NCBI RefSeq assembly: GCF_004834005.1 | Contig: NZ_STFF01000001.1 | Span: forward strand, 1,115,347-1,179,346 | Direction: 5' to 3' | DNA: 64,000 nt | DNA from: Niastella caeni | GTDB taxonomy: Bacteria; Bacteroidota; Bacteroidia; Chitinophagales; Chitinophagaceae | Shown: piece by piece, positions 1 through 12,142 of the stretch | Position numbering within the stretch: position 1 is the first letter of the stretch | Layout: every line of letters starts with the position of its first letter | The notes under the pieces: generated by a model | What the model saw: the letters and a program-made list of their open reading frames with translations, nothing else | Databases searched by the model: none | What the model was told of the DNA's origin: nothing | Program-made: the position numbers and the translations under genes

Positions 1-591
1 CCGCGTATTGGGCACTTTAAAAGTTAAACTGGAAGTGGTCATTTGCACGCCCTTTACATTCTCCAGCGCATCGTAGAAGTTAGGCGCCGGGGTTTCGCGG
101 ATCGCCCGGATATCGAGCTTTTCAATCGCAACCGGCGATTTGAGGATGTTTTCAGGTACGCGGGATGCAGTTACAACTACTTCATTACCCAATACCGTTT
201 GCGTTACCATGGCCACCTGTAATTTGGAGCCCAGGCTTTTTATTTCCAGCTCCCGTGGTTGAAAACCTACGGATGTAAAAACAAGTGTAAAAGGCAATTT
301 TTGTTTTGTACGAAGTATAAAGCCGCCGGTATTGTCGGTAATAGTTCCGGTTACCGAACCTTTTATCTGCACACTTACATCGGGCAAAGGTTCATTCTTT
401 TCATGGTTGATCACCGTGCCGGATATTTCAATAAGGGCCACAGTTTGAGAAAAAGCAGTTGAGCTTACAAAGAGTGCCAGCGATGCTAAAACGACCAATT
501 TCAATTTTTGAACCCGGTTATCCTGTGCAAAAAGGCCTTTGTACAAAGTTTTGGGTGCAAGCATCCAGGCTGATGGATTTGCAGATTTCAT
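1..591 (-). CDS. TonB-dependent receptor, N-terminal part (runs off the left edge)
   Basis: Reading leftward from an ATG at 591 gives 197 codons without a stop. The protein has a long N-terminal stretch, then a hydrophobic signal segment (about residues 31-48, ending in AFSQT). A carboxypeptidase-regulatory-like beta domain follows (about 52-120, with the GTVIN and GGFIL type pattern), then a TonB-box/plug start around NEVVVTASRVPE and the FYDALENVKGVQ plug signature. The family forms outer-membrane beta barrels that import substrates using TonB energy. The substrate is not visible. The gene lies 240 bp beyond the sulfur operon in the same direction, and two copies of the dyad also found at the sulfur promoter lie in its 5' region, so a sulfur-containing substrate is a reasonable inference. 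Confidence 0.9.
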   Translation of the reverse strand, partial: MKSANPSAWMLAPKTLYKGLFAQDNRVQKLKLVVLASLALFVSSTAFSQTVALIEISGTVINHEKNEPLPDVSVQIKGSVTGTITDNTGGFILRTKQKLPFTLVFTSVGFQPRELEIKSLGSKLQVAMVTQTVLGNEVVVTASRVPENILKSPVAIEKLDIRAIRETPAPNFYDALENVKGVQMTTSSLTFKVPNTR

Positions 592-832: not shown

Positions 833-2362
833 TTAAAAGATCTTTACAATAATTTTCAGGCTCCAGAATATTACCAGTATACCCAATAAGATCAGAGAGG
901 TTTTACGAGGTAATTTACCGGCCAGTTTCGCCGCCAATGGGGCTGCCAGTAAACCGCCTATAACCAGGGCCACGATCACCTGCCAGTGCGTAACACCCAG
1001 CATGGTAAAAAAAGTAAAGGCGCTTGCCAGTGTAACAAAAAACTCTGTAAGGCTCACCGATCCTATCACAAACCGCGGGCTACGGCCTTTGGTAATTAAC
1101 GTAGTGGTTACTATAGGGCCCCAGCCACCGCCGCCAAATGAATCGAGGAAACCGCCAAAACCGGCCAGCCAGCCATAATGCTTGAACTTCTTTTTTTTCT
1201 GCTCGCTTTTAAAGGCATTCCAAAGTATACGAAGGCCCAGCAACATGGTGTAGCTGGCAATAATTGGCCGTAAATACGGGGTATGCGTATCGCCATATTT
1301 TGAAAGCAGTATGGCTCCCAATATAGCGCCCAATACGCCCGGTATAACCAGTGCCTTGAATAGTTTCTTATTTACGTTGCCGAATTTATAGTGGCTGTAT
1401 CCCGAAGCGCCGCTGGCGAACATTTCTGCCGTATGTATACTACCGCTCATCGCCGCCGGACTCACCCCTGCCGTTAATAAAATGGTTGCGCTGGTAACAC
1501 CATAGCCCATCCCCAATGCACCGTCTACCAACTGTGCCAGGAAACCGGCCAGCAGCATCCAGTGAAAGTTCTTATCCAGGTGCTGGTACCATCTTACCGT
1601 ATCATCGGCTATTCGCTGAAACGGTAAGTATGAAAATATAAAGTGACCTACAAGCATCAGGGCAAATGCGATCAGGGAATACGTAGCAATTTTGCGCCAG
1701 CGTTTTTCCCTTTCTACATTATCCTTTTCAACGAGTATGCGGGTGATCTCGTTCAGCCGTTTTACTTTGTATTCAAAATTGCCATTCAGTTTATTTCTAA
1801 CTGCATGCAGGTTATTGATCATGTCGTCCAGCTCAGCCGGTAAGGCATGATTCAATACTTCTTTTATACGTTTGGCAGCAGTAGGTGATTTACCATTGGT
1901 TGAAATGGCAATCTTCAGGTTGCCTTTCTGCACAACAGAGCTCAGGTAAAAATCGCATTGCTCCGGCGTATCCGCTACGTTCACCAGGATCTTTTTCTCT
2001 TTGGCAGCCGCGCGAATAGTAAGGCTCGATTCTTTTTCGTTTACAGCAATTACAACCAGGTCTTTATTTTCAAGATCGGCTTCTATAAACGCCCGCTCAT
2101 GCAACGTAACGTTGGGATGGTGTTTTGCCAGCTTACGTACTTCATCGGAAATATGGATAGCGACAACAGTGACCGGTGCTGCAGGTGAATTACCCAGCAA
2201 CGCTGATAATTTTTCTGCGCCTACCTTTCCGCCTCCTACCAGCAATACTTTCAGTTCTTCCAGCTTTAAAAAAACAGGAAATAAAAGATTGCCCTGATCG
2301 CCGGAAGCGCCAGTTGTTTGTTTTACCGGTATCTTTTGATCTGTTGACATGCTTGTCAGCAT
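833..2362 (-). CDS. Fusion: siroheme synthase N-domain (precorrin-2 dehydrogenase/ferrochelatase) + TSUP permease
   Basis: The protein has 509 residues in two recognisable parts. Residues about 27-215 match the CysG N-terminal/Met8p fold: NAD loop GGGKVG at 43-48, NVAD with the conserved Asp131, and NGKSPTAAKRIKE. This part oxidises precorrin-2 and inserts iron to make siroheme. Residues about 226-509 are a TauE/SafE (TSUP) membrane permease with about eight hydrophobic segments and the motifs QLVDGALGMGYG (about 277-288) and DSFGGGGWGP (407-416). TSUP proteins carry sulfite, sulfate or organosulfonates. The gene is last in the sulfur operon, starting 3 bp after the cysI stop. No other sulfate transporter is in the operon, so the TSUP half may supply or export the oxyanion. 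An alternative start is Met5. Confidence 0.9.
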   Translation of the reverse strand: MLTSMSTDQKIPVKQTTGASGDQGNLLFPVFLKLEELKVLLVGGGKVGAEKLSALLGNSPAAPVTVVAIHISDEVRKLAKHHPNVTLHERAFIEADLENKDLVVIAVNEKESSLTIRAAAKEKKILVNVADTPEQCDFYLSSVVQKGNLKIAISTNGKSPTAAKRIKEVLNHALPAELDDMINNLHAVRNKLNGNFEYKVKRLNEITRILVEKDNVEREKRWRKIATYSLIAFALMLVGHFIFSYLPFQRIADDTVRWYQHLDKNFHWMLLAGFLAQLVDGALGMGYGVTSATILLTAGVSPAAMSGSIHTAEMFASGASGYSHYKFGNVNKKLFKALVIPGVLGAILGAILLSKYGDTHTPYLRPIIASYTMLLGLRILWNAFKSEQKKKKFKHYGWLAGFGGFLDSFGGGGWGPIVTTTLITKGRSPRFVIGSVSLTEFFVTLASAFTFFTMLGVTHWQVIVALVIGGLLAAPLAAKLAGKLPRKTSLILLGILVIFWSLKIIVKIF

Positions 2363-2365
2363 TTT

Positions 2366-4051
2366 TTAAAACGTTACCAACTTTTCCCGAACTGCAAAAT
2401 CACCAAATGTTTCGCCTGAATTCCTGTTCTTGCTATATCTTTCAAACAGTTCATCCAGCTCTTTCAAAATTGCAGGCTCGTCGATATTTTCTTTATACTT
2501 TTTATTTAAACGGAAACCTTCGCGGTCGCCACCCAAATGCAAATTATAACGTCCATACGCAGTGCCTATAAAACCGATCTCCGCTGCATACGGCCTTCCG
2601 CAACCATTGGGACAACCGGTCATACGCATTGAAATTTCCTCATCCTGCAGGCCATACTTTGCCAATATTGGCTCAACTTTAGTGATGAGCGATGGCAGAT
2701 AACGTTGTGCTTCGGCCAACGCCAGCGAACAGGTGTTGAAGGCTACGCAGGCTATGGCGCTTTTACGCATGGCGCCCGCATTGTCAGTATGTGCAATAAT
2801 ACCAAAATCGTTCAATATCTTTTCTATCGCTTTTTTGTCTTTCTGCGCAATGTCGCTGATGATAAGGCCCTGATTACTGGTAAACCTGAAATTGGCTTTA
2901 CCGGTTTTTGCCACTTCGAGCAAGGCTGTTTTTAAAGCCACCTTTTCATCGGCTATACGGCCATTTTCAATAAATACGGTATAATACCATTTGCCTTCGT
3001 GGTTCTTATGCCAGCCATAATCATCCTTTCTGCTGGTGAAGGTATATGGTTTTGGCTCTTCGAGTTTGAAACCACAACGTTTTTCCAGTTCTGCCTTGAA
3101 TGCTTCCACTCCCATTTTGTCGATGGTATATTTCAGCCTCGATAGCTTACGATCGCTGCGATTACCATAGTCGCGCTGAACGGTAATTACTTCCAGTACC
3201 GCTTTCAGCGTTTGTTCTTCGCCGCGTACAAAACCGAGCATAGATGCCAGGCGTGGATAAGTGGCAGCGTTACCATGCGTAGTGCCCAGGCCGCCACCCG
3301 CAGCAATATTAAACCCTATCAGTTTGTTATTTTCAACAATGGCAATAAGACCCAGGTCATTGGTAAATACATCCACGTCGTTGTTTGGCGGAATAGCTAT
3401 ACCTATTTTGAACTTACGGGGCAGATAGCGGTCCTGGTATAAAGGATCTTTTTCTACTTCTTCTTTTTCCTTCGGGTCAAGCAGGGGCTTTTCATCGAGC
3501 CATATTTCATAATAGGCTTTTGTTTTGGGCAAACCCAGCTTGCTTATTTTTGCCGCATAAGAGAATATTTCTTCATGTATTGGCGAGAATTTGGGATGTG
3601 AAGCACAAGCCACATTACGGTTCACATCGCCACAGGCTGAAATAGAATCAATGAGTATGGTGTTGAAAGCCTTAATAGTTGGCTTTACATGCGATTTTAA
3701 AATGCCATGCAACTGAATGGTTTGGCGGGTGGTGATCTTAATAACCCCAGTTGAATGTTCACCGGCAATATTATGCAGGCCCACGTATTGTTCACCGGTC
3801 ATAAAACCACCGGGCAAACGTAAACGGAGCATATATGAATACAGCCATTCCAGCTTTTTAGCGCTACGCTCTTCGCGGCGGTCCCGATCGTCCTGCTGGT
3901 ACATGCCATGAAACTTAACCAGCGCCTGGTCATCTTCACGTATGGCACCTGTTAACTCGTCGTGCAGGCTCTCTTTTAATGTACCCCGCAAGCCGTCGCT
4001 GGCCATTTTTATTCTCTCGGTAGAAGACAAATTATTTTGATTCGTGCTCAT
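2366..4051 (-). CDS. cysI: Assimilatory sulfite reductase, hemoprotein subunit
   Basis: The protein reduces sulfite to sulfide with six electrons delivered by CysJ. Counting from the upstream in-frame ATG at 4060, the four cysteines that bind the coupled siroheme/4Fe-4S centre are visible: C438 and C444 in ACVAFNTC, and C483 and C487 in TGCPNGCGRP. The ferredoxin-like repeats and the RLPGGFMTGEQ and TTRQTIQLHG siroheme-pocket signatures are also present. Length is typical of CysI. I prefer the MSTN start at 4051 because the same 30-nt initiation context precedes cysE. It lies 43 bp downstream of cysJ and is followed at once by the siroheme-making fusion, consistent with cofactor supply from the same mRNA. 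Confidence 0.95.
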   Translation of the reverse strand: MSTNQNNLSSTERIKMASDGLRGTLKESLHDELTGAIREDDQALVKFHGMYQQDDRDRREERSAKKLEWLYSYMLRLRLPGGFMTGEQYVGLHNIAGEHSTGVIKITTRQTIQLHGILKSHVKPTIKAFNTILIDSISACGDVNRNVACASHPKFSPIHEEIFSYAAKISKLGLPKTKAYYEIWLDEKPLLDPKEKEEVEKDPLYQDRYLPRKFKIGIAIPPNNDVDVFTNDLGLIAIVENNKLIGFNIAAGGGLGTTHGNAATYPRLASMLGFVRGEEQTLKAVLEVITVQRDYGNRSDRKLSRLKYTIDKMGVEAFKAELEKRCGFKLEEPKPYTFTSRKDDYGWHKNHEGKWYYTVFIENGRIADEKVALKTALLEVAKTGKANFRFTSNQGLIISDIAQKDKKAIEKILNDFGIIAHTDNAGAMRKSAIACVAFNTCSLALAEAQRYLPSLITKVEPILAKYGLQDEEISMRMTGCPNGCGRPYAAEIGFIGTAYGRYNLHLGGDREGFRLNKKYKENIDEPAILKELDELFERYSKNRNSGETFGDFAVREKLVTF

Positions 4052-4094
4052 AATTTTCAATGTTCAATGTGGAAAAAATGTAAACTCACTTTTA

Positions 4095-5843
4095 CTAATA
4101 CACGTCTTTCAGGAACCGGCCTTCTTCTTTCAGGTTAATTAAAAATTCAATAGCCTGCGCGCTTGATTTGTTACCAAAACGCTCAATGATCTGCAGAAGG
4201 GTGTTCTCCACATCTACACTCATTGGTTCCTTGGCACCGCATATATATACATAAGCGCCATTTTGCAACCACTCATACAGCTCCCTGGCATGTTGCAACA
4301 TTTTGTGCTGTACATATATTTTAGTTGCCTGATCTCTTGAAAAGGCTACGTTCATTTTTGTGAGTACACCGGTTTGCATCCAGTTCTGCAATTCCGTTTG
4401 ATACAGGAAATCGGTTGTGAAATGCTGGTCACCAAAGAACAGCCAGTTGCGACCGGTAGCACCCGCGGCATCCCGCTCAGCCACAAACGACCTGAATGGA
4501 GCAATACCGGTTCCGGGTCCGATCATGATCACATCTTTATCGGGCGCCGGCAACCTGAACTGGTTGTTTTTGTGCACATAAAATTCCAGGGTGCTGTCAA
4601 CCGGCAATTCTGCCAGGTAATTAGAGCACAAGCCATGTTTTACTTCCCCGTTCACTTTAAAATTATCGCGGGCGATGGTAACATGCACTTCACCACTATG
4701 CGCCTGGGGTGAAGAAGAAATGGAATACAGGCGCGGTGTGATCGGTTCTAAGATGCCAATCACTTCTTCAAACTGTGAAGCATTATTCACCGGGTATATT
4801 TTCAACAAGTCGAGCAGGCTGATCTTTGTTTCAGGAATATCCTGTTTAACAATAGCAGCATATTGCTTTACTACACGTTCCGGCAAATAAGCGATGTTCA
4901 GTTTCTTTTTCAACAGTTCTAAAACCGTATGCGACTCATTGCGGAAAGGCACTGTTTTCTTCGCATCAATACCGGTCAATGCAATGATCGCATCTATAAT
5001 AGCTGGCGCATTCTCAGGAACAATCCCGATTGAATCACCGGGTTGATATTCCAGCTCATCCGCTGTTATTTCAATATGGTGTGTTTGTTTGTTAGAACCC
5101 CTGTCGTTCAGATTAATATTGGTAATGATGTTACCGGTATATGTTTTTTTACCGGCAGGCTTCTTAGCCACCACGGTAGCGCCCACTGATGCGCTGCCAT
5201 TGCTGCTGGTGGTTGTGGTGAGCGAATGTAATACCTGGGAAAACCAGCCTTCTGCATCGCCCTGGTAATCGGTATCGCATTTTATTAATGGTGCGATCCT
5301 TTCCCCGCCCAGCTTTTGCAATTGCTGATCTACATCTTCGCCGGCCTTGCAAAACAAGGGATACGAAGTATCGCCCAACGCCAGTACGCCAAACTTTAAT
5401 TGATTCAACTTAAATCCATTCTGATGAATATGGTCGTAAAACTTCTTTGCGGTAGCAGGTGGTTCACCTTCGCCCTGTGTGCTGATGATCGTAAAGAAAT
5501 ATTCTTCTTTCGACAGATCATTCAGCCGGTATTGATCGAGGCTTACCACTTTGGCATTGATACCGCTCTTCTTTGCTTTAGCAGCCAGGTCGGTTGCCAG
5601 CTTTTTAGAGTTGCCGGTTTCAGTGCCATAAGCAATAGTAATTTTGGATACGGCTGGCTTATCGGAAGCAGGTGCAGCAACTGGTGCAGACGCAGTTGCA
5701 GGTACTGAAGCTGAAGCCAGCGCGGGTTGTTCGTGGCAATTCATTAACACCCCGGCCAGGAATCCATTCATCCAAACCAGTTCTTCTTTGGTTGAAGACC
5801 TTACTAAATCCTGTAACAATTTCAATTTATGCTCTGCTAACAT
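4095..5843 (-). CDS. cysJ: Sulfite reductase flavoprotein (NADPH, FMN/FAD)
   Basis: This 582-residue diflavin reductase passes NADPH electrons to CysI. Order of parts: a short helical N-terminal region (1-35), an Ala/Pro/Ser-rich linker (38-63), a flavodoxin domain (about 68-205, FMN loop GTETGNS 73-79, STQGEGEPP), a Thr/Ser linker (209-233), an FAD domain with RLYS (371-374), and an NADPH domain with GPGTGIAPF (442-450), ending in the typical C-terminal aromatic (DVY). The start overlaps the end of the cobA-type gene by 17 bp, implying translational coupling. Confidence 0.95.
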   Translation of the reverse strand: MLAEHKLKLLQDLVRSSTKEELVWMNGFLAGVLMNCHEQPALASASVPATASAPVAAPASDKPAVSKITIAYGTETGNSKKLATDLAAKAKKSGINAKVVSLDQYRLNDLSKEEYFFTIISTQGEGEPPATAKKFYDHIHQNGFKLNQLKFGVLALGDTSYPLFCKAGEDVDQQLQKLGGERIAPLIKCDTDYQGDAEGWFSQVLHSLTTTTSSNGSASVGATVVAKKPAGKKTYTGNIITNINLNDRGSNKQTHHIEITADELEYQPGDSIGIVPENAPAIIDAIIALTGIDAKKTVPFRNESHTVLELLKKKLNIAYLPERVVKQYAAIVKQDIPETKISLLDLLKIYPVNNASQFEEVIGILEPITPRLYSISSSPQAHSGEVHVTIARDNFKVNGEVKHGLCSNYLAELPVDSTLEFYVHKNNQFRLPAPDKDVIMIGPGTGIAPFRSFVAERDAAGATGRNWLFFGDQHFTTDFLYQTELQNWMQTGVLTKMNVAFSRDQATKIYVQHKMLQHARELYEWLQNGAYVYICGAKEPMSVDVENTLLQIIERFGNKSSAQAIEFLINLKEEGRFLKDVY

Positions 5844-6690
5844 GTTTATTTACTTTTTCCGCGTTTTCAGAATCGGATGTTGTTGTAATCAGTTTGGCTA
5901 GTGGTTTAAAATAATGCTCGGCACTATTGCTGTTTTCAATCCATTTGAATTGCTCGTGCAAAGCCACCACTTTTCCTATGATCACCAGCGAAGGAGAAAC
6001 AAATGTTTTTCCCCGCAATTGTTCATCGTATTTATATATATTGGTAACATGTACGTTTTGCAAAGGCGTAGTAGCCTGTTCAATCACTGCCAGCAACTTA
6101 TCGTCGCCAATGTTATGTTGAACCAGGTTGTTCACTACATGATCCAGTGTTTCAGATGACATATAAAACACCAGCGTATCATTCGTTTGCGCCAGTTCTT
6201 TCCAGTAAGCTTCGGTAACTACATCCAGTTTATAACTGGTTAAGAAACGAACGGCTGTAGTATATCCTCTGGCTGTTAATGGAATGCCTGCATACGCAGC
6301 CGCACCGAGTGCTGCCGTTACACCGGGCACAATTTCATACGGTATGTTGTTTTGTACCAGGGTTTGCAACTCATCGAGGATGTTCGAGAACATAGATGCA
6401 TCGCCCCCTTTCAACCGTACTACCAGTTTACCCTGCAAAGCATAGTGCACCATCAGTTCATTAATGGTATACTGAGGTGTGGAGGAACCGCGGCTGCACT
6501 GCTTTCCTACATATACGATCTCCGCGTTGCCGTTCACATACTCCTGCAAAATCACCTCACTTACCAGGCGATCGGCCAACACCACTTCAGCCTGCTGCAG
6601 GTAACGCACCGTTTTTACCGTTACCAGTTCCGGGTCACCGGGACCAGCAGCAGCCAGTATTACTTTACCATATGTTGGGTTCGTTTGCAT
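5827..6690 (-). CDS. cobA: Uroporphyrinogen-III C-methyltransferase (SUMT)
   Basis: This methyltransferase adds two methyl groups from SAM to uroporphyrinogen III to give precorrin-2, the substrate of the siroheme synthase domain at the operon end. Family signatures seen: GPGDPELVTVK (16-26), the second motif VVRLKGGDASMF, and the region VPGVTAALGAAAYAGIPLTARG. Length (287 aa) fits a stand-alone SUMT. The C-terminal tail of about 35 residues is rich in Thr/Ser/Glu and overlaps cysJ. Together with the fusion gene it provides the complete path from uroporphyrinogen III to siroheme within the operon. Confidence 0.93.
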   Translation of the reverse strand: MQTNPTYGKVILAAAGPGDPELVTVKTVRYLQQAEVVLADRLVSEVILQEYVNGNAEIVYVGKQCSRGSSTPQYTINELMVHYALQGKLVVRLKGGDASMFSNILDELQTLVQNNIPYEIVPGVTAALGAAAYAGIPLTARGYTTAVRFLTSYKLDVVTEAYWKELAQTNDTLVFYMSSETLDHVVNNLVQHNIGDDKLLAVIEQATTPLQNVHVTNIYKYDEQLRGKTFVSPSLVIIGKVVALHEQFKWIENSNSAEHYFKPLAKLITTTSDSENAEKVNKHVSRA

Positions 6691-6702: not shown

Positions 6703-7677
6703 TTATTTATACAAACCGTCAATTGACAAATAGCGTTCACCGGTATCGTAATTGAATGTCAGTACCCGGGCGCCTTTAGGGATCTCGGCCAATTTTTTAG
6801 CTACTGCGGCCAATGCTGCACCGGTTGAAATACCAGCCAATATGCCTTCTTCTTTAGCCAGTCGTTGCGCAAAGTCAAATGCTTCATCTTTACCAACCTG
6901 TATTGTTCCATCGAGCAATTTTGTGTTCAGGATGGAAGGAATGAATCCGGCGCCGAGCCCTTGCAAAGGATGTGGTCCGGGAGCGCCACCGCTGATCACG
7001 GCTGACAACTCAGGCTCTACAGCATATACTTTCAGGTTAGGGAATTTTTCTTTCAACACTTCTGCAACACCAGTGATATGTCCACCAGTTCCCACACCGG
7101 TGATCAGATAATCGATTCCATCAGGGAAGCTTGCTAAAATTTCCTGCGCTGTGGTTTCCCGATGTACTTTAACGTTGGCTGCATTATCAAACTGCTGGGG
7201 CATCCAGGAGTTAGGAGTTTGCGCAACCAGTTCCTTTGCCTTTTCAATAGCGCCCTTCATGCCTTTCTCACGCGGCGTTAATTCAAATGAAGCACCGTAC
7301 AATTCCATCAATTGTCTTCTTTCCATACTCATTGATTCGGGCATTACCAAAATCAATTTGTATCCTTTTACCGCAGCTACCATAGCCAACCCGATACCGG
7401 TGTTGCCCGAAGTAGGTTCAATGATCACACTGTTTTTATTCAGAATACCTTTTTTCTCTGCATCATCTATCATGGATAATGCAATGCGGTCTTTAATGCT
7501 ATTGCCTGGGTTGCTGCGCTCCAGTTTTATCCAAACTTCATGATTATCGCCATACAGCCTGTTTATTTTTACATGCGGTGTTTGGCCAATTGTTTCTAAA
7601 ATGTTACCGGCTCTCATTCGCTGGTTGTTTTGGTTGTCAGTAATATTATTTGTTTTGCTTGGTTGTTCTGTGATCAT
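6703..7677 (-). CDS. cysK: Cysteine synthase A (O-acetylserine sulfhydrylase)
   Basis: The enzyme combines O-acetylserine with sulfide to give cysteine. The PLP lysine is K62 in [11 protein letters not shown], the substrate loop is EPTSGNTG (87-94), and the glycine-rich phosphate cradle is GVGTGGH. Total length is 324 aa. The first 20 residues (Asn/Gln-rich) are unlike the family, so a start at Met21 ([11 protein letters not shown], 7617) is equally possible. It lies 12 bp upstream of cobA and 14 bp downstream of cysE, so the two last steps of cysteine synthesis are adjacent. Confidence 0.94.
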
Positions 7678-7691
7678 TGTAATAAGTTTTT

Positions 7692-8519
7692 TTATATGAC
7701 AAAGTTTAATGGCTCCGGAAATGGATTGTTATCCCGCACCTTTACTTCACTTTTATGATACACCACCGAGAATGAGGGCACGCTGTATGTAAGCCAAACA
7801 TTACCGCCTATGATACTATCTTTTCCAATTACAGTTGTGCCACCCAGTATGGTTGCGCCTGAATAAATGGTCACATTATCTTCAATGGTAGGGTGGCGTT
7901 TTGATACATTGTCCTTCGACACGTTTAAAGCGCCTAATGTTACGCCCTGGTATATTTTTACATTATTACCTATTTCAGTTGTCTCCCCTATCACAATGCC
8001 GGTACCGTGGTCAATGCAAAACGATTCGCCGATGCGTGCGCCAGGATGAATATCAACACCGGTTTTGCCATGTGCATATTCTGTAAATAATCTTGGCAAA
8101 ATTTCTACGCCTTGTTCCCATAACTGGTGCGACAAGCGATAAACAGCCGTTGCATAAAACCCGGGATAGGCCACTATCACTTCTTCTACAGAGCGTGCCG
8201 CAGGGTCAAACTGCAACAATGCATACGCATCTTTCATCAGCTTCGCATATAGGGCCGGTATAGCTGCAAAAAACGTTTCGGTAATTTTTTCTGCCTTCTC
8301 TTTCTTGTGCACCACATCATAAGCCAGGCTGGTAAGATGACTCTTCAATATTTCGAGTTCCTTTTCCAGATCGCTTACCTGGTGATGTTTTTTATTAGGC
8401 AGAAACAAAAAATTAAATGCCTGATCAATGAACTGCGCTGCTATTTCCTTATCAGGAAATGCAGTATCCACCTTTTTATGTTGTGCAAATAAATGCTGTA
8501 TAAATTCGTTCGTGCTCAT
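7692..8519 (-). CDS. cysE: Serine O-acetyltransferase
   Basis: The enzyme acetylates serine with acetyl-CoA to make O-acetylserine for CysK. An alpha-helical N-terminal half is followed by a left-handed beta-helix of hexapeptide repeats, with the conserved block [23 protein letters not shown] (read in short pieces: [20 protein letters not shown]) and GVTLGAL. The protein ends with the flexible tail PEPLNFVI, which in the family docks into the CysK active site. I prefer the MSTN start at 8519 over the upstream ATG at 8528, because the same initiation context occurs before cysI. Confidence 0.93.
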
Positions 8520-8561
8520 AATAATCAAGATTCAACGTTCAACACATTATTGACTGTTCAT

Positions 8562-9800
8562 CTATTGAATCATACAGGCGCCTACCGTTACATGGCTTGT
8601 TTCATCTATCAGGATCGCACCGCCGTTCTCGCGCAATTCGCTATATGAATCGTACGGGATAGGTGACGCTGTTTTTATTTTTACTTTTATTACATCATTC
8701 AATGTAGCCGATGTAGCATCTGTTTTCTGCAGCGTATTTACATCCAGCTTGTATTCAATTTCTTTTACCACGCTTCTAACCAACCTGCTGTTGATCTGCA
8801 ATAAATATTTATTACCGGTAACCAGGGGTTTATTATCCATCCAGCACAACACCACGTCCAGCTCCTGCGTCAATTTTGGCAGGTTGTCGCTTTTTACGAT
8901 AATGTCGCCACGGCTGATATCAATATCATCTTCCAGGTGCAGAATAGCGCTTTGCGGTGCAAAAACTTCTTCTACTTCCTTTCCGTTGTGTTCAATGGAT
9001 TTTATGGTGCTGGTATGTCCTGACGGAAGTACGGTTATTGCATCGCCTGTTCGATAAATACCGCTGATCACCTTTCCGGCATAACCGCGGTAATCGTGCA
9101 GTTCCTCTGTTTGAGGACGAATTACATATTGCACAGGGAACCGGGGGTCGGTGAGGTTAATATCTTTATCTACCTCTACGCTTTCCAGGAAATTCAGTAG
9201 GGAAGTGCCTTCGTACCAGCTCAGCTTGGGTGATTTTTCAACGATGTTATCGCCAAACATGGCACTGATAGGAATATAGGTCACATCTTTCAAACCTAAT
9301 GATTTTGCCACTTCGGCATAATCAATCACGATATTGTTGTAAACATCCTGCGAGTAGTCAACCAGGTCCATTTTGTTAATGGCCACCACCACGTGCGGAA
9401 TGTTCAATAAAGAAGCTATTATAGAATGCCGGCGGGTTTGTTCAACCACTCCATTACGGGCATCAATTAAAATAATGGCCAGGTCGGCAGTAGAAGCGCC
9501 GGTAACCATGTTGCGGGTATACTGAATATGACCCGGTGCATCGGCGATAATGAATTTACGTTTGGGAGTAGAAAAATATTTATACGCCACATCGATCGTA
9601 ATGCCCTGTTCCCTTTCTGCACGCAATCCATCGGTAAGCAAAGCCAGATCGATCTCGCCCTGCTCTTTATTCTTACTTTGTTTCTCAATAGCCTCCAGTT
9701 GATCGATCATTATACTTTTGCTATCGTATAATAAACGGCCGATCAGGGTACTCTTACCATCATCAACACTGCCTGCTGTTATAAACCGTAATAAATCCAT
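8562..9800 (-). CDS. cysN: Sulfate adenylyltransferase subunit 1 (GTPase)
   Basis: This elongation-factor-like GTPase drives ATP sulfurylase together with CysD. GTP-binding motifs: G1 GSVDDGKS (10-17), G3 DAPGHIQYTRNM, and G4 NKMDLVD. Two beta-barrel domains follow, as in CysN. Length is 412 aa; there is no C-terminal APS kinase extension (as in the CysNC fusion), and no cysC exists in the operon. This fits direct use of APS by the iron-sulfur CysH. Confidence 0.95.
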   Translation of the reverse strand: MDLLRFITAGSVDDGKSTLIGRLLYDSKSIMIDQLEAIEKQSKNKEQGEIDLALLTDGLRAEREQGITIDVAYKYFSTPKRKFIIADAPGHIQYTRNMVTGASTADLAIILIDARNGVVEQTRRHSIIASLLNIPHVVVAINKMDLVDYSQDVYNNIVIDYAEVAKSLGLKDVTYIPISAMFGDNIVEKSPKLSWYEGTSLLNFLESVEVDKDINLTDPRFPVQYVIRPQTEELHDYRGYAGKVISGIYRTGDAITVLPSGHTSTIKSIEHNGKEVEEVFAPQSAILHLEDDIDISRGDIIVKSDNLPKLTQELDVVLCWMDNKPLVTGNKYLLQINSRLVRSVVKEIEYKLDVNTLQKTDATSATLNDVIKVKIKTASPIPYDSYSELRENGGAILIDETSHVTVGACMIQ

Positions 9801-9876: not shown

Positions 9877-10785
9877 TTAAAAATATCCGTTCTTCTTCCT
9901 GTCTTCCATCGCTGCTTCAGACACTTTATCGTCTATACGGGTTTCGCCGCGTTCGCTTGTTTTGGTAGCGGTGATCTCGCTGATAATATCATCGATATTC
10001 GATGCATGTGATTCTACTGCTGCGGTGCAGGTCATGTCGCCCACGGTACGGTAACGCACTTTCTTTCTCAACACTTTGTCAGTATCATCTAACTTTATAA
10101 AATCGCTTACAGCTACCAGTTGTCCTTCGTGATCGATCACTTCGCGTTCGTGTGAAAAATAAATAGAAGGCAATTCGATCTTTTCGCGGCGGATATAATT
10201 CCAAACATCCAGTTCCGTCCAGTTGCTGATCGGGAATACCCGTACGTTCTCACCTTTGGTAATTCTTCCATTGTAGGTATTCCACAGTTCGGGACGTTGC
10301 AGTTTAGGGTCCCATTGACCGAACTCATCCCGTACAGAAAATATGCGTTCTTTCGCTCTTGCTTTTTCTTCATCGCGGCGGGCGCCACCGATGCAGGCAT
10401 CAAACTTGAACTCCTCAATAGTATCCAGCAAAGTGTAGGTTTGCAAAGCATTGCGGCTTGCAAACTTTCCTTTGGGTTCTGTGAGGTGCTTTGCTTTAAT
10501 GGTATCTTCTACGTTACGTACTATTAATTTCTCGCCAAGGGTTTTAGCCAGTTGATCACGGTATTCCAGCGCTTCAGGGAAATTATGCCCGGTATCGATG
10601 TGCACCAGCGGGAAAGGGAATTTACCGGGACGGAATGCCTTCAATGCCAATTGCACCAGGGTAATAGAATCTTTACCGCCGGAAAATAATAATGCTGGTC
10701 TTTCAAATTGCCCTGCTACTTCGCGGAAGATATGAATAGCTTCCGATTCCAGATGATCCAAATAATCTAAACTATACTTACTCAT
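9877..10785 (-). CDS. cysD: Sulfate adenylyltransferase subunit 2
   Basis: This PAPS-reductase-fold catalytic subunit of ATP sulfurylase makes APS from sulfate and ATP with CysN. The PP-loop SGGKDS is at 35-40. Also seen are the HIDTGHNFPEALEYRD motif, the basic FACIGGARRDEEKARAKER block, and the C-terminal RKKVRYRTVGDMTCTAAV and ERGETRIDD signatures of CysD. At 302 aa it is full length. It lies 29 bp after cysH. Confidence 0.96.
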   Translation of the reverse strand: MSKYSLDYLDHLESEAIHIFREVAGQFERPALLFSGGKDSITLVQLALKAFRPGKFPFPLVHIDTGHNFPEALEYRDQLAKTLGEKLIVRNVEDTIKAKHLTEPKGKFASRNALQTYTLLDTIEEFKFDACIGGARRDEEKARAKERIFSVRDEFGQWDPKLQRPELWNTYNGRITKGENVRVFPISNWTELDVWNYIRREKIELPSIYFSHEREVIDHEGQLVAVSDFIKLDDTDKVLRKKVRYRTVGDMTCTAAVESHASNIDDIISEITATKTSERGETRIDDKVSEAAMEDRKKNGYF

Positions 10786-10814: not shown

Positions 10815-11531
10815 TTATTTATGAATATGCAGCCCACACTCTTTTTTGGCTGCATCTTCCCACCACCAACGACCGGCCCTGAAATCTTCACCAGGCCGTA
10901 TTGCACGGGTACAGGGAGCGCAACCGATGCTTACAAAACCGCGGTCGTGCAGCACGTTGTAAGGCACATTGTTATCGTTTATATATTTTTTAACCTGCTC
11001 AGTGTTCCAGTGCAGTATGGGATTGTATTTAATGATCTGGTTGGTCTCGTCCCACTCGATCACGCTGAGGTCTTTGCGATCGGGAGAATGTTCTGCCCGA
11101 AGCCCGGTGATCCAGATCGCATTGCCGGCCAATGCCCTTTTCAGTGGTTCTACTTTACGGATAAAGCAGCACTGTTTGCGGTTTTCCACCGACTCATAAA
11201 AGGCATTGGGGCCTTTATCGGTAACAAATTCTTCCAGCAAACGGTAGTCGGGATAGTAGGCGGTTATGTGAGCCTGGTATTTTTCGTTGGTATTGTTCCA
11301 AACAGAATAGGTTTCAGCAAATAACCTTCCGGTATCCAAAGTAAAGATGTTAACAGGCAGGTGATTGCTCAGAATTTCATGGGCAATTACCTGGTCTTCA
11401 TAACTAAAGCTGGTAGAAAACGTAACCTGGCCAGGAAACTGTTCGGTAAGCAGTTTTATAAATTCGCGAATATTTAGTCTATCTGACTGGTGGGTTAATT
11501 CTGACAAAGATTCCTTTAGTATTGCGCTCAT
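10815..11531 (-). CDS. cysH: Adenylyl-sulfate (APS) reductase, 4Fe-4S type
   Basis: First gene of the sulfur operon. It reduces APS to sulfite using thioredoxin. The cysteine pairs C121-C122 (KQCCFIRK) and C204/C207 (GCAPCTRA) are the 4Fe-4S ligands that separate APS reductases from the cluster-free PAPS reductases, and the catalytic C232 lies in the C-terminal ECGLHIHK. The absence of cysC in the operon agrees. The start ATG at 11531 follows a leader of about 160 nt that contains a Cys-rich mini-ORF. Confidence 0.95.
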   Translation of the reverse strand: MSAILKESLSELTHQSDRLNIREFIKLLTEQFPGQVTFSTSFSYEDQVIAHEILSNHLPVNIFTLDTGRLFAETYSVWNNTNEKYQAHITAYYPDYRLLEEFVTDKGPNAFYESVENRKQCCFIRKVEPLKRALAGNAIWITGLRAEHSPDRKDLSVIEWDETNQIIKYNPILHWNTEQVKKYINDNNVPYNVLHDRGFVSIGCAPCTRAIRPGEDFRAGRWWWEDAAKKECGLHIHK

Positions 11532-11609
11532 ATGGATATATCATTCATTTCATTCATTAATCTGGATCATGGAAGCAAGTGCGACGGACAAGCGAGTAGG
11601 TATTGAGTA

Positions 11610-11678
11610 TTAACAGCAACAACAATACTTGTTGCAACAGGAGATGTACATTATTTGTATGGCGTGGGAACAAAACAT
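11610..11678 (-). CDS. Cysteine-rich leader peptide of the sulfur operon (22 aa)
   Basis: Reading leftward from ATG at 11678, 22 codons end in TAA (11612-11610). The peptide starts MFCSHAIQ and ends SCCNKYCCCC, so the last nine codons contain six Cys codons and the final four codons before the stop are all Cys (TGT, TGT, TGC, TGT). A second in-frame ATG at 11651 would give 13 residues. It starts about 16 nt after the expected transcription start and ends 78 nt before cysH. A run of codons for the pathway end-product immediately before a stop is the hallmark of attenuation-type leader peptides, so I infer cysteine-responsive control. No T-run terminator is visible between it and cysH, so the mechanism would be translational or Rho-dependent. 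Confidence 0.7.
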   Translation of the reverse strand: MFCSHAIQIMYISCCNKYCCCC

Positions 11679-11681
11679 ATA

Positions 11682-11702
11682 AGTCTACTCAATTTGTAGA
11701 TC
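11682..11702. promoter_or_regulatory. 21-bp dyad, copy C, at the cysH promoter
   Basis: AGTCTACT-N5-TGTAGATC. The inner arms TCTAC/GTAGA are complementary, and the left arm matches the dyads at 616-636 and 765-785. It touches the -7 element at 11702-11709 and covers the expected start point, a repressor-like position. Confidence 0.55.
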
Positions 11703-11709
11703 AAAGATA
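11702..11709 (-). promoter_or_regulatory. -7 promoter element of the sulfur operon
   Basis: TATCTTTG on the minus strand is a full match to the Bacteroidota consensus TAnnTTTG. Transcription would start near 11694, 16 nt before the leader-peptide ATG. Dyads lie on both sides: copy C over the start region and copy D near the -33 region. Confidence 0.7.
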
Positions 11710-11726
11710 AAACAGAAAGCTGGATT

Positions 11727-11757
11727 GTAGAAATTTTTTCTACCAAACGAGTGGACT
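11727..11757. promoter_or_regulatory. Dyad copy D plus an overlapping perfect palindrome at the cysH -33 region
   Basis: Positions 11737-11757 read TTTCTACC-N5-AGTGGACT, the fourth match to the 21-bp dyad. Positions 11727-11743 (GTAGAAA-TTT-TTTCTAC) form an overlapping perfect 7-bp-arm palindrome. Both lie 20-50 bp upstream of the -7 element. Confidence 0.5.
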
Positions 11758-12142
11758 AAAACGGTTCATTTAACAAAAGCATCTACAAACAATTGTTTGT
11801 TTGTTTAATTTTAGCGGGGTTTTCAACCAATGGCTGTTTTTAATTGTTGATTTCGCACTTATTATTCATGCTAAATAAAACTAATGATTGTTCGGTTAAC
11901 CTTTTAACCTTATTGAGTATTAAAACCGCCTGACAGGCTTTCGGACGTTTTTACATAGGACTACCTGTTAGGGTACAGAGAAGGGAGAAAGGGGCTTTTT
12001 ATGCCAGCCCGACTGCCTGTATAGCAGCCTCAAAAGGCTTGTTTATGAAGATATTAGGTCAAAATGGCTGTTTTTTTATGTAGCACGGTATTTGGTTTCC
12101 CACAAAGACTTAAATTGCCAACTCAAATAATAGAAAAGTACT
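11758..12142. other. Intergenic region between the sulfur operon and clpP1
   Basis: A/T-rich, without an open frame I trust. It contains a perfect 14-bp palindrome CAAACAATTGTTTG (11786-11799) followed by GTTT repeats. A trigger-factor gene, often found next to clpP in other bacteria, is absent here. No clear TAnnTTTG element for clpP1 was found. Confidence 0.5.

What the first reader, a model, noticed from the sequence alone, without database searches (positions are those of the whole stretch)
11610..11678. Cysteine-codon leader peptide ahead of the sulfate-to-cysteine operon
Seen: 22-codon frame, ATG to TAA, with seven Cys codons, four of them consecutive just before the stop, placed between a perfect -7 element and cysH. 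Known: leader peptides rich in the end-product amino acid control trp, his and leu operons in proteobacteria, and Cys-rich uORFs regulate sulfur genes in actinobacteria. Inference: ribosomes slowed at Cys codons when cysteine is scarce change expression of cysH and the genes behind it. I know of no described example in Bacteroidota. There is no T-run terminator between the peptide and cysH, so the mechanism would differ from the trp type (translational release or Rho).
Basis: partly seen in the sequence, partly recalled or inferred. Interest (0 to 1): 0.88.

Follow-up and report, generated by a model that had tools for sequence, protein, structure and literature searches.

The report
Cysteine-run leader controlling sulfur genes
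Just ahead of its sulfate-to-cysteine genes this Bacteroidota bacterium carries a 22-codon reading frame that ends in four cysteine codons, and frames ending in cysteine runs but otherwise unalike sit at the same place in many relatives and ahead of a sulfatase locus in the same genome; they are predicted to sense cysteine shortage by stalling ribosomes and would thereby likely keep the termination factor Rho from switching the genes off.

Summary
In detail: a 22-codon frame, MFCSHAIQIMYISCCNKYCCCC*, lies at 11610-11678 (-), between a TAnnTTTG promoter element and cysH.

It is not chance. Of 124 family genomes with a cysH match, 44 carry an upstream Cys-run frame (shuffles: mean 0.47, maximum 2). 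The rest of the peptide changes freely between genera. In 58 of 60 distinct leaders the last Cys is within two residues of the stop.

The same genome has a second leader (ending CCCCC) before a SusC-SusD-sulfatase locus, behind a similar promoter palindrome (GTCTAC-N7-GTAGAC) that probably belongs to an Rrf2 regulator. Across the family 17 of 68 promoter-palindrome sites precede a Cys-run frame (shuffles 0.45).

Mechanism, inferred: the RNA after the stop is C-rich and G-poor in 57 of 59 cases and the window shows no terminator, so Rho-dependent attenuation relieved by stalled ribosomes is the best reading. One clade has a leader-start/cysH-start helix instead or as well.

Cysteine-run leaders with suspected Rho control were predicted in Actinobacteria in 2005; this looks like an independent Bacteroidota version spanning a regulon. 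Nothing has been tested in cells.

The parts
11610..11678 (-). leader frame, 22 codons plus TAA: MFCSHAIQIMYISCCNKYCCCC*
   Evidence: conserved in relatives
11613..11624 (-). four consecutive Cys codons (TGT TGT TGC TGT) directly before the stop: predicted stall site
   Evidence: last Cys within 2 residues of the stop in 58 of 60 leaders
11634..11639 (-). Cys codons 14-15 of the leader (codon 15 is Cys in all 8 Niastella/Longitalea species, codon 14 in 6)
11702..11709 (-). Bacteroidota -7 promoter element TATCTTTG (TAnnTTTG); start of transcription predicted near 11696
   Evidence: sequence; consensus recalled
11683..11701 (.). operator palindrome ATCTAC-N7-GTAGAC overlapping the predicted transcription start
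   Evidence: family-wide promoter-linked pattern
11738..11756 (.). second operator copy, GTCCAC-N7-GTAGAA, about 50 nt upstream of the predicted start
   Evidence: one mismatch; two such matches in the window also occur in 19 of 100 shuffles; conserved in 8 species
11547..11609 (-). C-rich, G-poor spacer right after the leader stop: predicted Rho-loading (rut-like) region (C 27%, G 14%)
11686..11693 (-). 5' arm ATTGAGTA of a possible helix that would loop out the leader
   Evidence: weak: not beyond shuffles
11602..11609 (-). 3' arm TACTCAAT of that helix, directly after the stop
   Evidence: weak
10815..11531 (-). cysH, (phospho)adenylylsulfate reductase, first gene after the leader
9877..10785 (-). 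cysD, sulfate adenylyltransferase small subunit
8562..9800 (-). cysN, sulfate adenylyltransferase large subunit
7692..8528 (-). serine O-acetyltransferase-like (cysE), below the NCBIfam cut-off
6703..7677 (-). cysK, cysteine synthase A
5827..6690 (-). uroporphyrinogen-III C-methyltransferase (siroheme)
4095..5843 (-). cysJ-like sulfite reductase flavoprotein, below the NCBIfam cut-off
2366..4060 (-). sulfite reductase haemoprotein (NIR_SIR domains)
833..2362 (-). siroheme dehydrogenase domain fused to a TauE-type sulfite exporter; last clear sulfur gene of the run

Best explanation
The 22-codon frame ending in four Cys codons ahead of cysH is likely a cysteine-sensing leader peptide that would control the sulfate-to-cysteine operon by Rho-dependent attenuation: when cysteine is plentiful, ribosomes are predicted to finish the leader and leave at its stop, exposing the C-rich, G-poor RNA that follows so that Rho could load and end transcription before cysH; when Cys-tRNA is short, ribosomes would stall on the Cys codons next to the stop, cover the start of that RNA, and let transcription run on. 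A second layer is likely: the promoter carries two copies of a palindrome that probably binds an Rrf2-family regulator. The same module (palindrome, Cys-run leader) stands ahead of a SusC-SusD-sulfatase locus in the same genome and, with a C-rich spacer as a rule, ahead of other SusC or PhyH genes in relatives, so it probably marks a sulfur regulon. Shown by sequence: the frame, its conservation, the C-rich spacers, the palindromes, the second leader, the lack of a terminator in the window, and the presence of rho. Inferred: translation, stalling, Rho action and Rrf2 binding.
For: Conservation of the Cys run only: 44 of 124 family cysH regions against shuffles 0.47, max 2; peptides unalike between genera. 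Cys is the last residue in 41 of 60 distinct leaders and within two residues of the stop in 58 of 60. Spacer C 26%, G 13%: C>G in 57 of 59 spacers (one of 60 dropped as too short), against 16 of 39 no-leader genomes with no gene just upstream of cysH (C-G p 2e-10) and 19 of 35 window genes (p 9e-6); the C excess begins at the stop and fades by about 40 nt. The 15 non-cysH leaders behind the palindrome show it too, 13 of 15. Second leader and sulfatase locus in the same genome. Promoter-linked palindrome: 68 sites in 40 of 195 family genomes against 4 for the reversed pattern; a Cys-run frame follows 17 of 68 against shuffle mean 0.45, max 2. Rrf2: the own gene is 65% identical to the Rrf2 gene beside cysH in Chryseobacterium, and a palindrome lies between rrf2 and the next gene with 2 or fewer of 100 shuffles as good in 8 of 11 cases. 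rho present.
Against: No expression, ribosome-profiling or termination data. Composition is indirect evidence for Rho, and the genomes are related, so p-values overstate independence. A stalled ribosome covers only about the first 12-15 nt of a region some 40 nt long (footprint recalled), so full masking is not self-evident. The leader is not universal: 80 of 124 family genomes lack a CCC frame before cysH; of 20 (of 41) genomes where another gene precedes cysH, 1 has such a frame farther upstream; of 25 sampled cysH loci outside the family, 1 has one (L328, sister family), and there the 60 nt after the stop are NOT C-rich (7 C, 11 G). In the own genome the bare palindrome is not enriched (5 places, reversed control 11), and the second leader's spacer is only slightly C>G (0.03). 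In clade B, 10 leaders, a leader-start/cysH-start helix argues for translational control.
Confidence: 0.58

Rival explanations
1. Translational release: the mRNA at the leader start pairs with the cysH start region and hides it; ribosomes stalled or queued on the Cys codons would keep the leader start occupied and free cysH.
For: Clade B (10 leaders): helices of 9-12 bp between the leader ATG region and -22 to +25 of the cysH start, with sequence changes on both arms (e.g. TTCATTGATGGT x ACTATCAATGAA, TTCGTTGATGG x CTATCAACGAA, TCGCTTTGATGG x CCATCAAAGCGA); 8 of the 10 reach p<0.05 against shuffled spacers; own pairs beat exchanged pairs, permutation p 0.003. Masking the leader start opens the cysH start by 2.8 kcal/mol on average there, against 1.5 for an average upstream window.
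Against: Clade B was picked by eye, so its p-values are not blind. For the window masking gives -0.3 kcal/mol and the best helix is p 0.19. Of 60 leaders 10 reach p<0.05, 8 of them clade B. The Niastella-group consensus fold has a weak leader-start/cysH-start pairing with no two-sided change.
Confidence: 0.2
2. Classical trp-type attenuation with competing terminator and antiterminator hairpins.
For: Leader peptide rich in the pathway's end product; a possible 7-bp helix around the leader with one compensated pair; in the sister-family locus L328 the spacer holds a short inverted repeat and is not C-rich (seen by eye).
Against: No terminator-like site in 11480-11830; the consensus fold lacks one; the 7-bp helix is not beyond shuffles, 129 of 500.
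Confidence: 0.05
3. The peptide itself acts, for example as a cysteine or metal buffer or an in-trans regulator, and the gene order is incidental.
For: Cys-rich peptides can bind metals (recalled).
Against: Apart from the Cys run the peptides look unrelated across genera; the run hugs the stop and the spacer composition changes right at the stop.
Confidence: 0.06
4. Regulation is by the promoter palindrome (Rrf2) alone and the Cys run has no regulatory role.
For: Strong palindrome-promoter motif; 51 of 68 palindrome sites have no CCC frame; 19 of 20 genomes with another gene before cysH, many of them rrf2-prx-cysH, lack the leader.
Against: Does not explain the repeated Cys runs or the C-rich spacers.
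Confidence: 0.1

Closest known systems
Cysteine-run leader peptides of cys operons in Mycobacterium, Propionibacterium and cbs of Bifidobacterium (Seliverstov et al. 2005, PMC1262725; cysteine section read in full, other passages seen; author name recalled)
   Same: Short frame with Cys codons near the stop, upstream of a cysteine operon, no terminator hairpin, poly-pyrimidine stretches after it, Rho proposed by analogy with tna.
   Different: Different phylum, no NCBIfam match for the peptide; here the C-rich spacer is a statistical feature across many genera, a promoter palindrome goes with it, and the leaders also precede SusC, sulfatase and PhyH genes.
Polycysteine leaderless short ORFs, cysteine-responsive attenuators in mycobacteria (Canestrari et al. 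2020; only its citation was seen, in reference lists; the paper is not held)
   Same: Cys-run short frame before operonic genes, reported as cysteine-responsive (title).
   Different: Those frames are leaderless (title); here a 5' untranslated stretch of about 20 nt is predicted. Mechanism details not read.
tnaC of E. coli (recalled, and named in PMC1262725)
   Same: Ribosome held at the leader's end blocks Rho loading just downstream of the stop (proposed here).
   Different: TnaC stalls on free tryptophan and induces a catabolic operon (recalled); here the signal would be lack of charged Cys-tRNA and the operon is biosynthetic.
Leader-peptide attenuation in Flavobacterium psychrophilum (PMC9723704; one section and passages read)
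   Same: Same phylum; leader-peptide clues upstream of amino-acid operons.
   Different: The cysteine pathway is not named in the main text; its supplementary table could not be read.
CymR/Rrf2-type cysteine regulators (recalled)
   Same: An Rrf2-family gene is tied by position and palindrome to cysH.
   Different: Operator sequence differs from what I recall for CymR; no ligand or binding tested.

Membership tests
Cysteine-run leader attenuator (actinobacterial type) | short frame with consecutive Cys codons near its stop, ahead of a cysteine operon | tested here: met
Cysteine-run leader attenuator (actinobacterial type) | no intrinsic terminator in the leader | tested here: met
   (window and Niastella group only)
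Cysteine-run leader attenuator (actinobacterial type) | homologous peptide or NCBIfam leader family | tested here: not met
   0 NCBIfam families for the peptide at E 0.01; a 22-residue query is near the limit of the method
Cysteine-run leader attenuator (actinobacterial type) | expression responds to cysteine through the Cys codons | not testable with these tools
   needs reporters
TnaC-like Rho-dependent leader | rut-like C>G region right after the leader stop | tested here: met
   (composition only; exception L328)
TnaC-like Rho-dependent leader | Rho present | tested here: met
TnaC-like Rho-dependent leader | Rho-dependent 3' ends, relieved by stalling | not testable with these tools
   needs 3'-end mapping with Rho inhibited
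trp-type attenuator | terminator hairpin with T-run and competing antiterminator | tested here: not met
Known riboswitch or T-box | match to an Rfam family | tested here: not met
   no match at E up to 1
Rrf2-controlled promoter | shared palindrome beside a related rrf2 gene | tested here: met
   8 of 11 cases with 2 or fewer of 100 shuffles as good; 3 of 11 not
Rrf2-controlled promoter | protein binds the palindrome | not testable with these tools
   needs binding assay

The most novel reading that the evidence does not exclude
Chitinophagaceae run a whole sulfur regulon on poly-Cys leader peptides: one module of palindrome, Cys-run leader and rut-like spacer sets not only cysteine synthesis but also outer-membrane SusC/SusD uptake and, in some, sulfatase scavenging by the charging of Cys-tRNA, with some lineages replacing or supplementing Rho control by a leader-start/cysH-start helix. 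It is a leader-peptide system that governs nutrient foraging loci, evolved independently of the actinobacterial one.
Probability: 0.55. Interest if true: 0.72.

Novelty: new variant of a known kind. Interest (0 to 1): 0.62.

Why it matters
If true, amino-acid leader peptides govern sulfur supply in a phylum where few have been described, and do so beyond biosynthesis: the same sensor would tune outer-membrane receptors and sulfatases used to forage for sulfur. The rapid turnover of everything but the Cys run, and the likely independent origin from the actinobacterial Cys leaders, make it a good natural series for asking how Rho-type and translation-type leaders arise and interchange.

Tried and rejected
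Universal RNA structure: RNAduplex of leader start against spacer (40 leaders) gave no general signal; a stricter helix test (60 leaders) singled out clade B. For the Niastella group a 7-bp helix with one compensated pair was not better than shuffles.

A single conserved leader across Bacteroidota: rejected. Of 25 sampled cysH loci outside the family 1 has a Cys-run frame near cysH (L328, sister family). Among named records titled outside Chitinophagaceae, two Pontibacter and one Cytophagales MAG (L063, L064, L058) have one, and L052 (titled Sphingobacteriales) has a clade B leader. Of 20 family genomes (of 41) where another gene precedes cysH, 1 has a Cys-run frame ahead of the operon.

Other TGYTGYTGYTGYTRR hits in the own genome (22 in all): only the window's and the one on C15 have a start codon and no overlapping open frame longer than about 210 nt.

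First control for spacer composition (80 no-leader genomes) was replaced by two stricter ones, because many of those segments follow another gene closely. For one no-leader genome (G172) the assumed cysH start is off by one base; it has no Cys run either way.

G153 and G007 count among the 44 and the 60 although their run is 11-12 residues from the stop; they may be chance.

Full report
What is there. Window 11610-11678 on the minus strand is a 22-codon frame, MFCSHAIQIMYISCCNKYCCCC*, followed after 78 nt by cysH. Behind cysH run cysD, cysN, a cysE-like gene, cysK, a siroheme methyltransferase, a cysJ-like gene, a sulfite reductase haemoprotein and a siroheme-dehydrogenase/TauE fusion, all on the same strand. 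TATCTTTG (11702-11709) fits the Bacteroidota -7 consensus TAnnTTTG (recalled). The genome (8.1 Mb, 17 contigs) is placed in one genus with G071 and G150, whose contig lengths equal those of Longitalea luteola and L. arenae records.

Conservation. In 8 Niastella/Longitalea species the leader's frame and Cys tail persist, with TGT/TGC changes inside the tail, while 34 of 35 columns of the spacer alignment vary. In the first 20 codons, variable columns by codon position are 6, 3 and 8 of 20, a mild third-position excess only. Across 124 family genomes with a cysH match (of 195 searched), 44 have an ATG-started frame with CCC within 350 nt upstream; shuffles give 0.47 (max 2), the antisense strand 0, and the next residue run is Leu in 15. 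The 44 fall mostly among the genomes whose CysH is most like the query: 37 of the best 56, 7 of the other 68 (the cut was chosen afterwards). Adding 16 from 79 named contigs gives 60 distinct leaders. Median length is 22 codons; Cys is the last residue in 41 and within two residues in 58; TGT 236, TGC 96. Outside the run the peptides look unrelated between genera, which fits selection on Cys codons, not on a peptide structure.

Negative results on distribution. 80 of the 124 lack it; in 41 of those 80 another same-strand frame ends within 200 nt upstream of cysH. I fetched about 6 kb upstream for 20 of these 41: 1 (G160) has a Cys-run frame ahead of the first gene of the run, 19 do not; many are arranged rrf2-peroxiredoxin-cysH (gene names there are my reading of the protein starts). 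Of 25 cysH loci outside the family, 1 has one: L328, in a sister family of the same order, with a run of seven Cys directly before the stop. There the 60 nt after the stop hold 7 C and 11 G and a short inverted repeat seen by eye, so the C-rich rule fails at that locus.

Operator and regulon. The palindrome RTCYAC-N7-GTRGAY has five exact places in the genome, against 11 for the reversed pattern, so by itself it is not enriched; but one place is at the window's leader and one at C15:314000. The latter is followed by MRLSKKSSSCDQRVTRVVVYYPNSSYRSFCCCCC*, then SusC, SusD, a PF00884 sulfatase, a PhyH-type dioxygenase and a short-chain dehydrogenase. In 195 family genomes the promoter-linked pattern TTTGTCYAC-N7-RTRGACT has 68 places in 40 genomes against 4 for the reversed pattern. 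All 68 were read: 17 are followed within 330 nt by a CCC frame, against a shuffle mean of 0.45 (max 2). Two of the 17 lie before cysH. Next genes at the 68 sites include cysH, SusC-like receptors, PhyH, YeiH-like and cysteine-desulfurase-like proteins (my reading of protein starts). Of the 15 non-cysH leaders, one is the own C15 locus; the other 14 were read for 6-13 kb downstream: one (G135) has SusC-SusD-sulfatase, others have SusC-SusD (two of them tested carry an M14 peptidase next) or PhyH-dehydrogenase pairs, one with a ComA-family gene. So sulfatases are not general among them.

Regulator. The genome has two Rrf2 genes over the cut-off and one weak match. The one at C15:86653 is 65% identical over 134 residues to the Rrf2 gene just upstream of cysH in Chryseobacterium. 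Between rrf2 and the next gene the palindrome occurs with 1-2 mismatches in 9 of 11 cases tested; 2 or fewer of 100 shuffles did as well in 8 of 11, 13-21 in the other 3. This links palindrome, Rrf2 and cysH by position; binding is not shown.

Mechanism. No terminator, no Rfam match. From the leader stop to 15 nt before cysH the RNA has C 26%, G 13%, pyrimidine 64%; C>G in 57 of 59 (one of 60 too short). In 39 no-leader genomes with no gene just upstream, C>G holds in 16; among 35 window genes, in 19. The C excess starts at the stop and fades after about 40 nt. For the 15 palindrome leaders not before cysH, C>G in 13; for the own C15 leader the excess is slight, 0.03. A C>G stretch free of structure is what Rho prefers (recalled), and rho is present. 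A Cys run pressed against the stop, followed at once by such a stretch, is the layout expected if a stalled ribosome masks Rho's landing site. The genomes are related, so the p-values overstate the surprise.

Clade B. Ten leaders, grouped by eye, show a 9-12 bp helix between the leader ATG and the cysH start region, with two-sided sequence change; 8 of 10 reach p<0.05, own pairings beat exchanged ones (permutation p 0.003), and masking the leader start frees the cysH start by 2.8 kcal/mol on average (range -1.95 to 8.24; an average upstream window gives 1.5). Elsewhere the gain averages 0.61 in the 8 Niastella-group leaders and 0.33 in the other 41 folded (59 of 60 folded). I read this as a lineage that adds or substitutes translational control.

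Literature. Seliverstov et al. 2005 (PMC1262725) predicted Cys-run leaders without terminators and with possible Rho sites in Mycobacterium, Propionibacterium and Bifidobacterium, calling the Rho part weak. Canestrari et al. 2020 reported cysteine-responsive polycysteine frames in mycobacteria (citation only; not held). F. psychrophilum: leader-peptide clues for amino-acid operons (PMC9723704, passages and one section). B. thetaiotaomicron: short frames in long 5' UTRs likened to leader peptides (PMC7366714, passages). A broad attenuator survey does not mention Bacteroides or kin by that word (PMC2965389, passages). Searches for a Bacteroidota cysteine leader showed none among the titles and abstracts listed; three of those lists were capped (20 of 31, 30 of 132, 15 of 330), and most subscription papers are not in the library.

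Verdict. Real, conserved, almost certainly a cis-acting cysteine leader (about 0.9); with Rho as the route about 0.58. A new variant of a known kind.

Noticed in passing
L231:607-711 (genome C15:314106-314210) with L231:907-9782: Second Cys-run leader in the same genome, before SusC, SusD, a sulfatase, a PhyH dioxygenase and a short-chain dehydrogenase.
   Followed up: yes
L228:1501-1519 (genome C14:152077-152095): An exact operator palindrome without an obvious Cys-run frame, upstream of a small CarboxypepD-like protein and a sterol-desaturase-like gene (my reading); possible further member of the regulon.
   Followed up: partly
window 1-591 (-): A protein with a CarboxypepD_reg_2 domain, like the start of a TonB receptor, follows the sulfur genes on the same strand and runs off the window; it may belong to the same operon.
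   Followed up: partly
window 833-2362 (-): Siroheme dehydrogenase domain fused to a TauE-type sulfite exporter in one frame.
   Followed up: partly
L347-L363 (family genomes): A recurrent rrf2-peroxiredoxin-cysH arrangement that lacks the Cys leader, as if one control layer had replaced the other.
   Followed up: partly
L365 (G160), about 4.0 kb upstream of cysH: A 59-codon frame ending CCCICCMP ahead of what looks like metY-metX-like genes that run into cysH.
   Followed up: partly
L328 (G349, sister family), upstream of cysH: A Cys leader ending in seven Cys codons whose spacer is not C-rich but holds a short inverted repeat; it may work by another route. The cysH match there also has an internal TAA.
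   Followed up: partly
L336:2253-3125: A ComA-family (phosphosulfolactate synthase) gene downstream of a Cys-leader PhyH-dehydrogenase pair, hinting at sulfonate metabolism under the same control.
   Followed up: no
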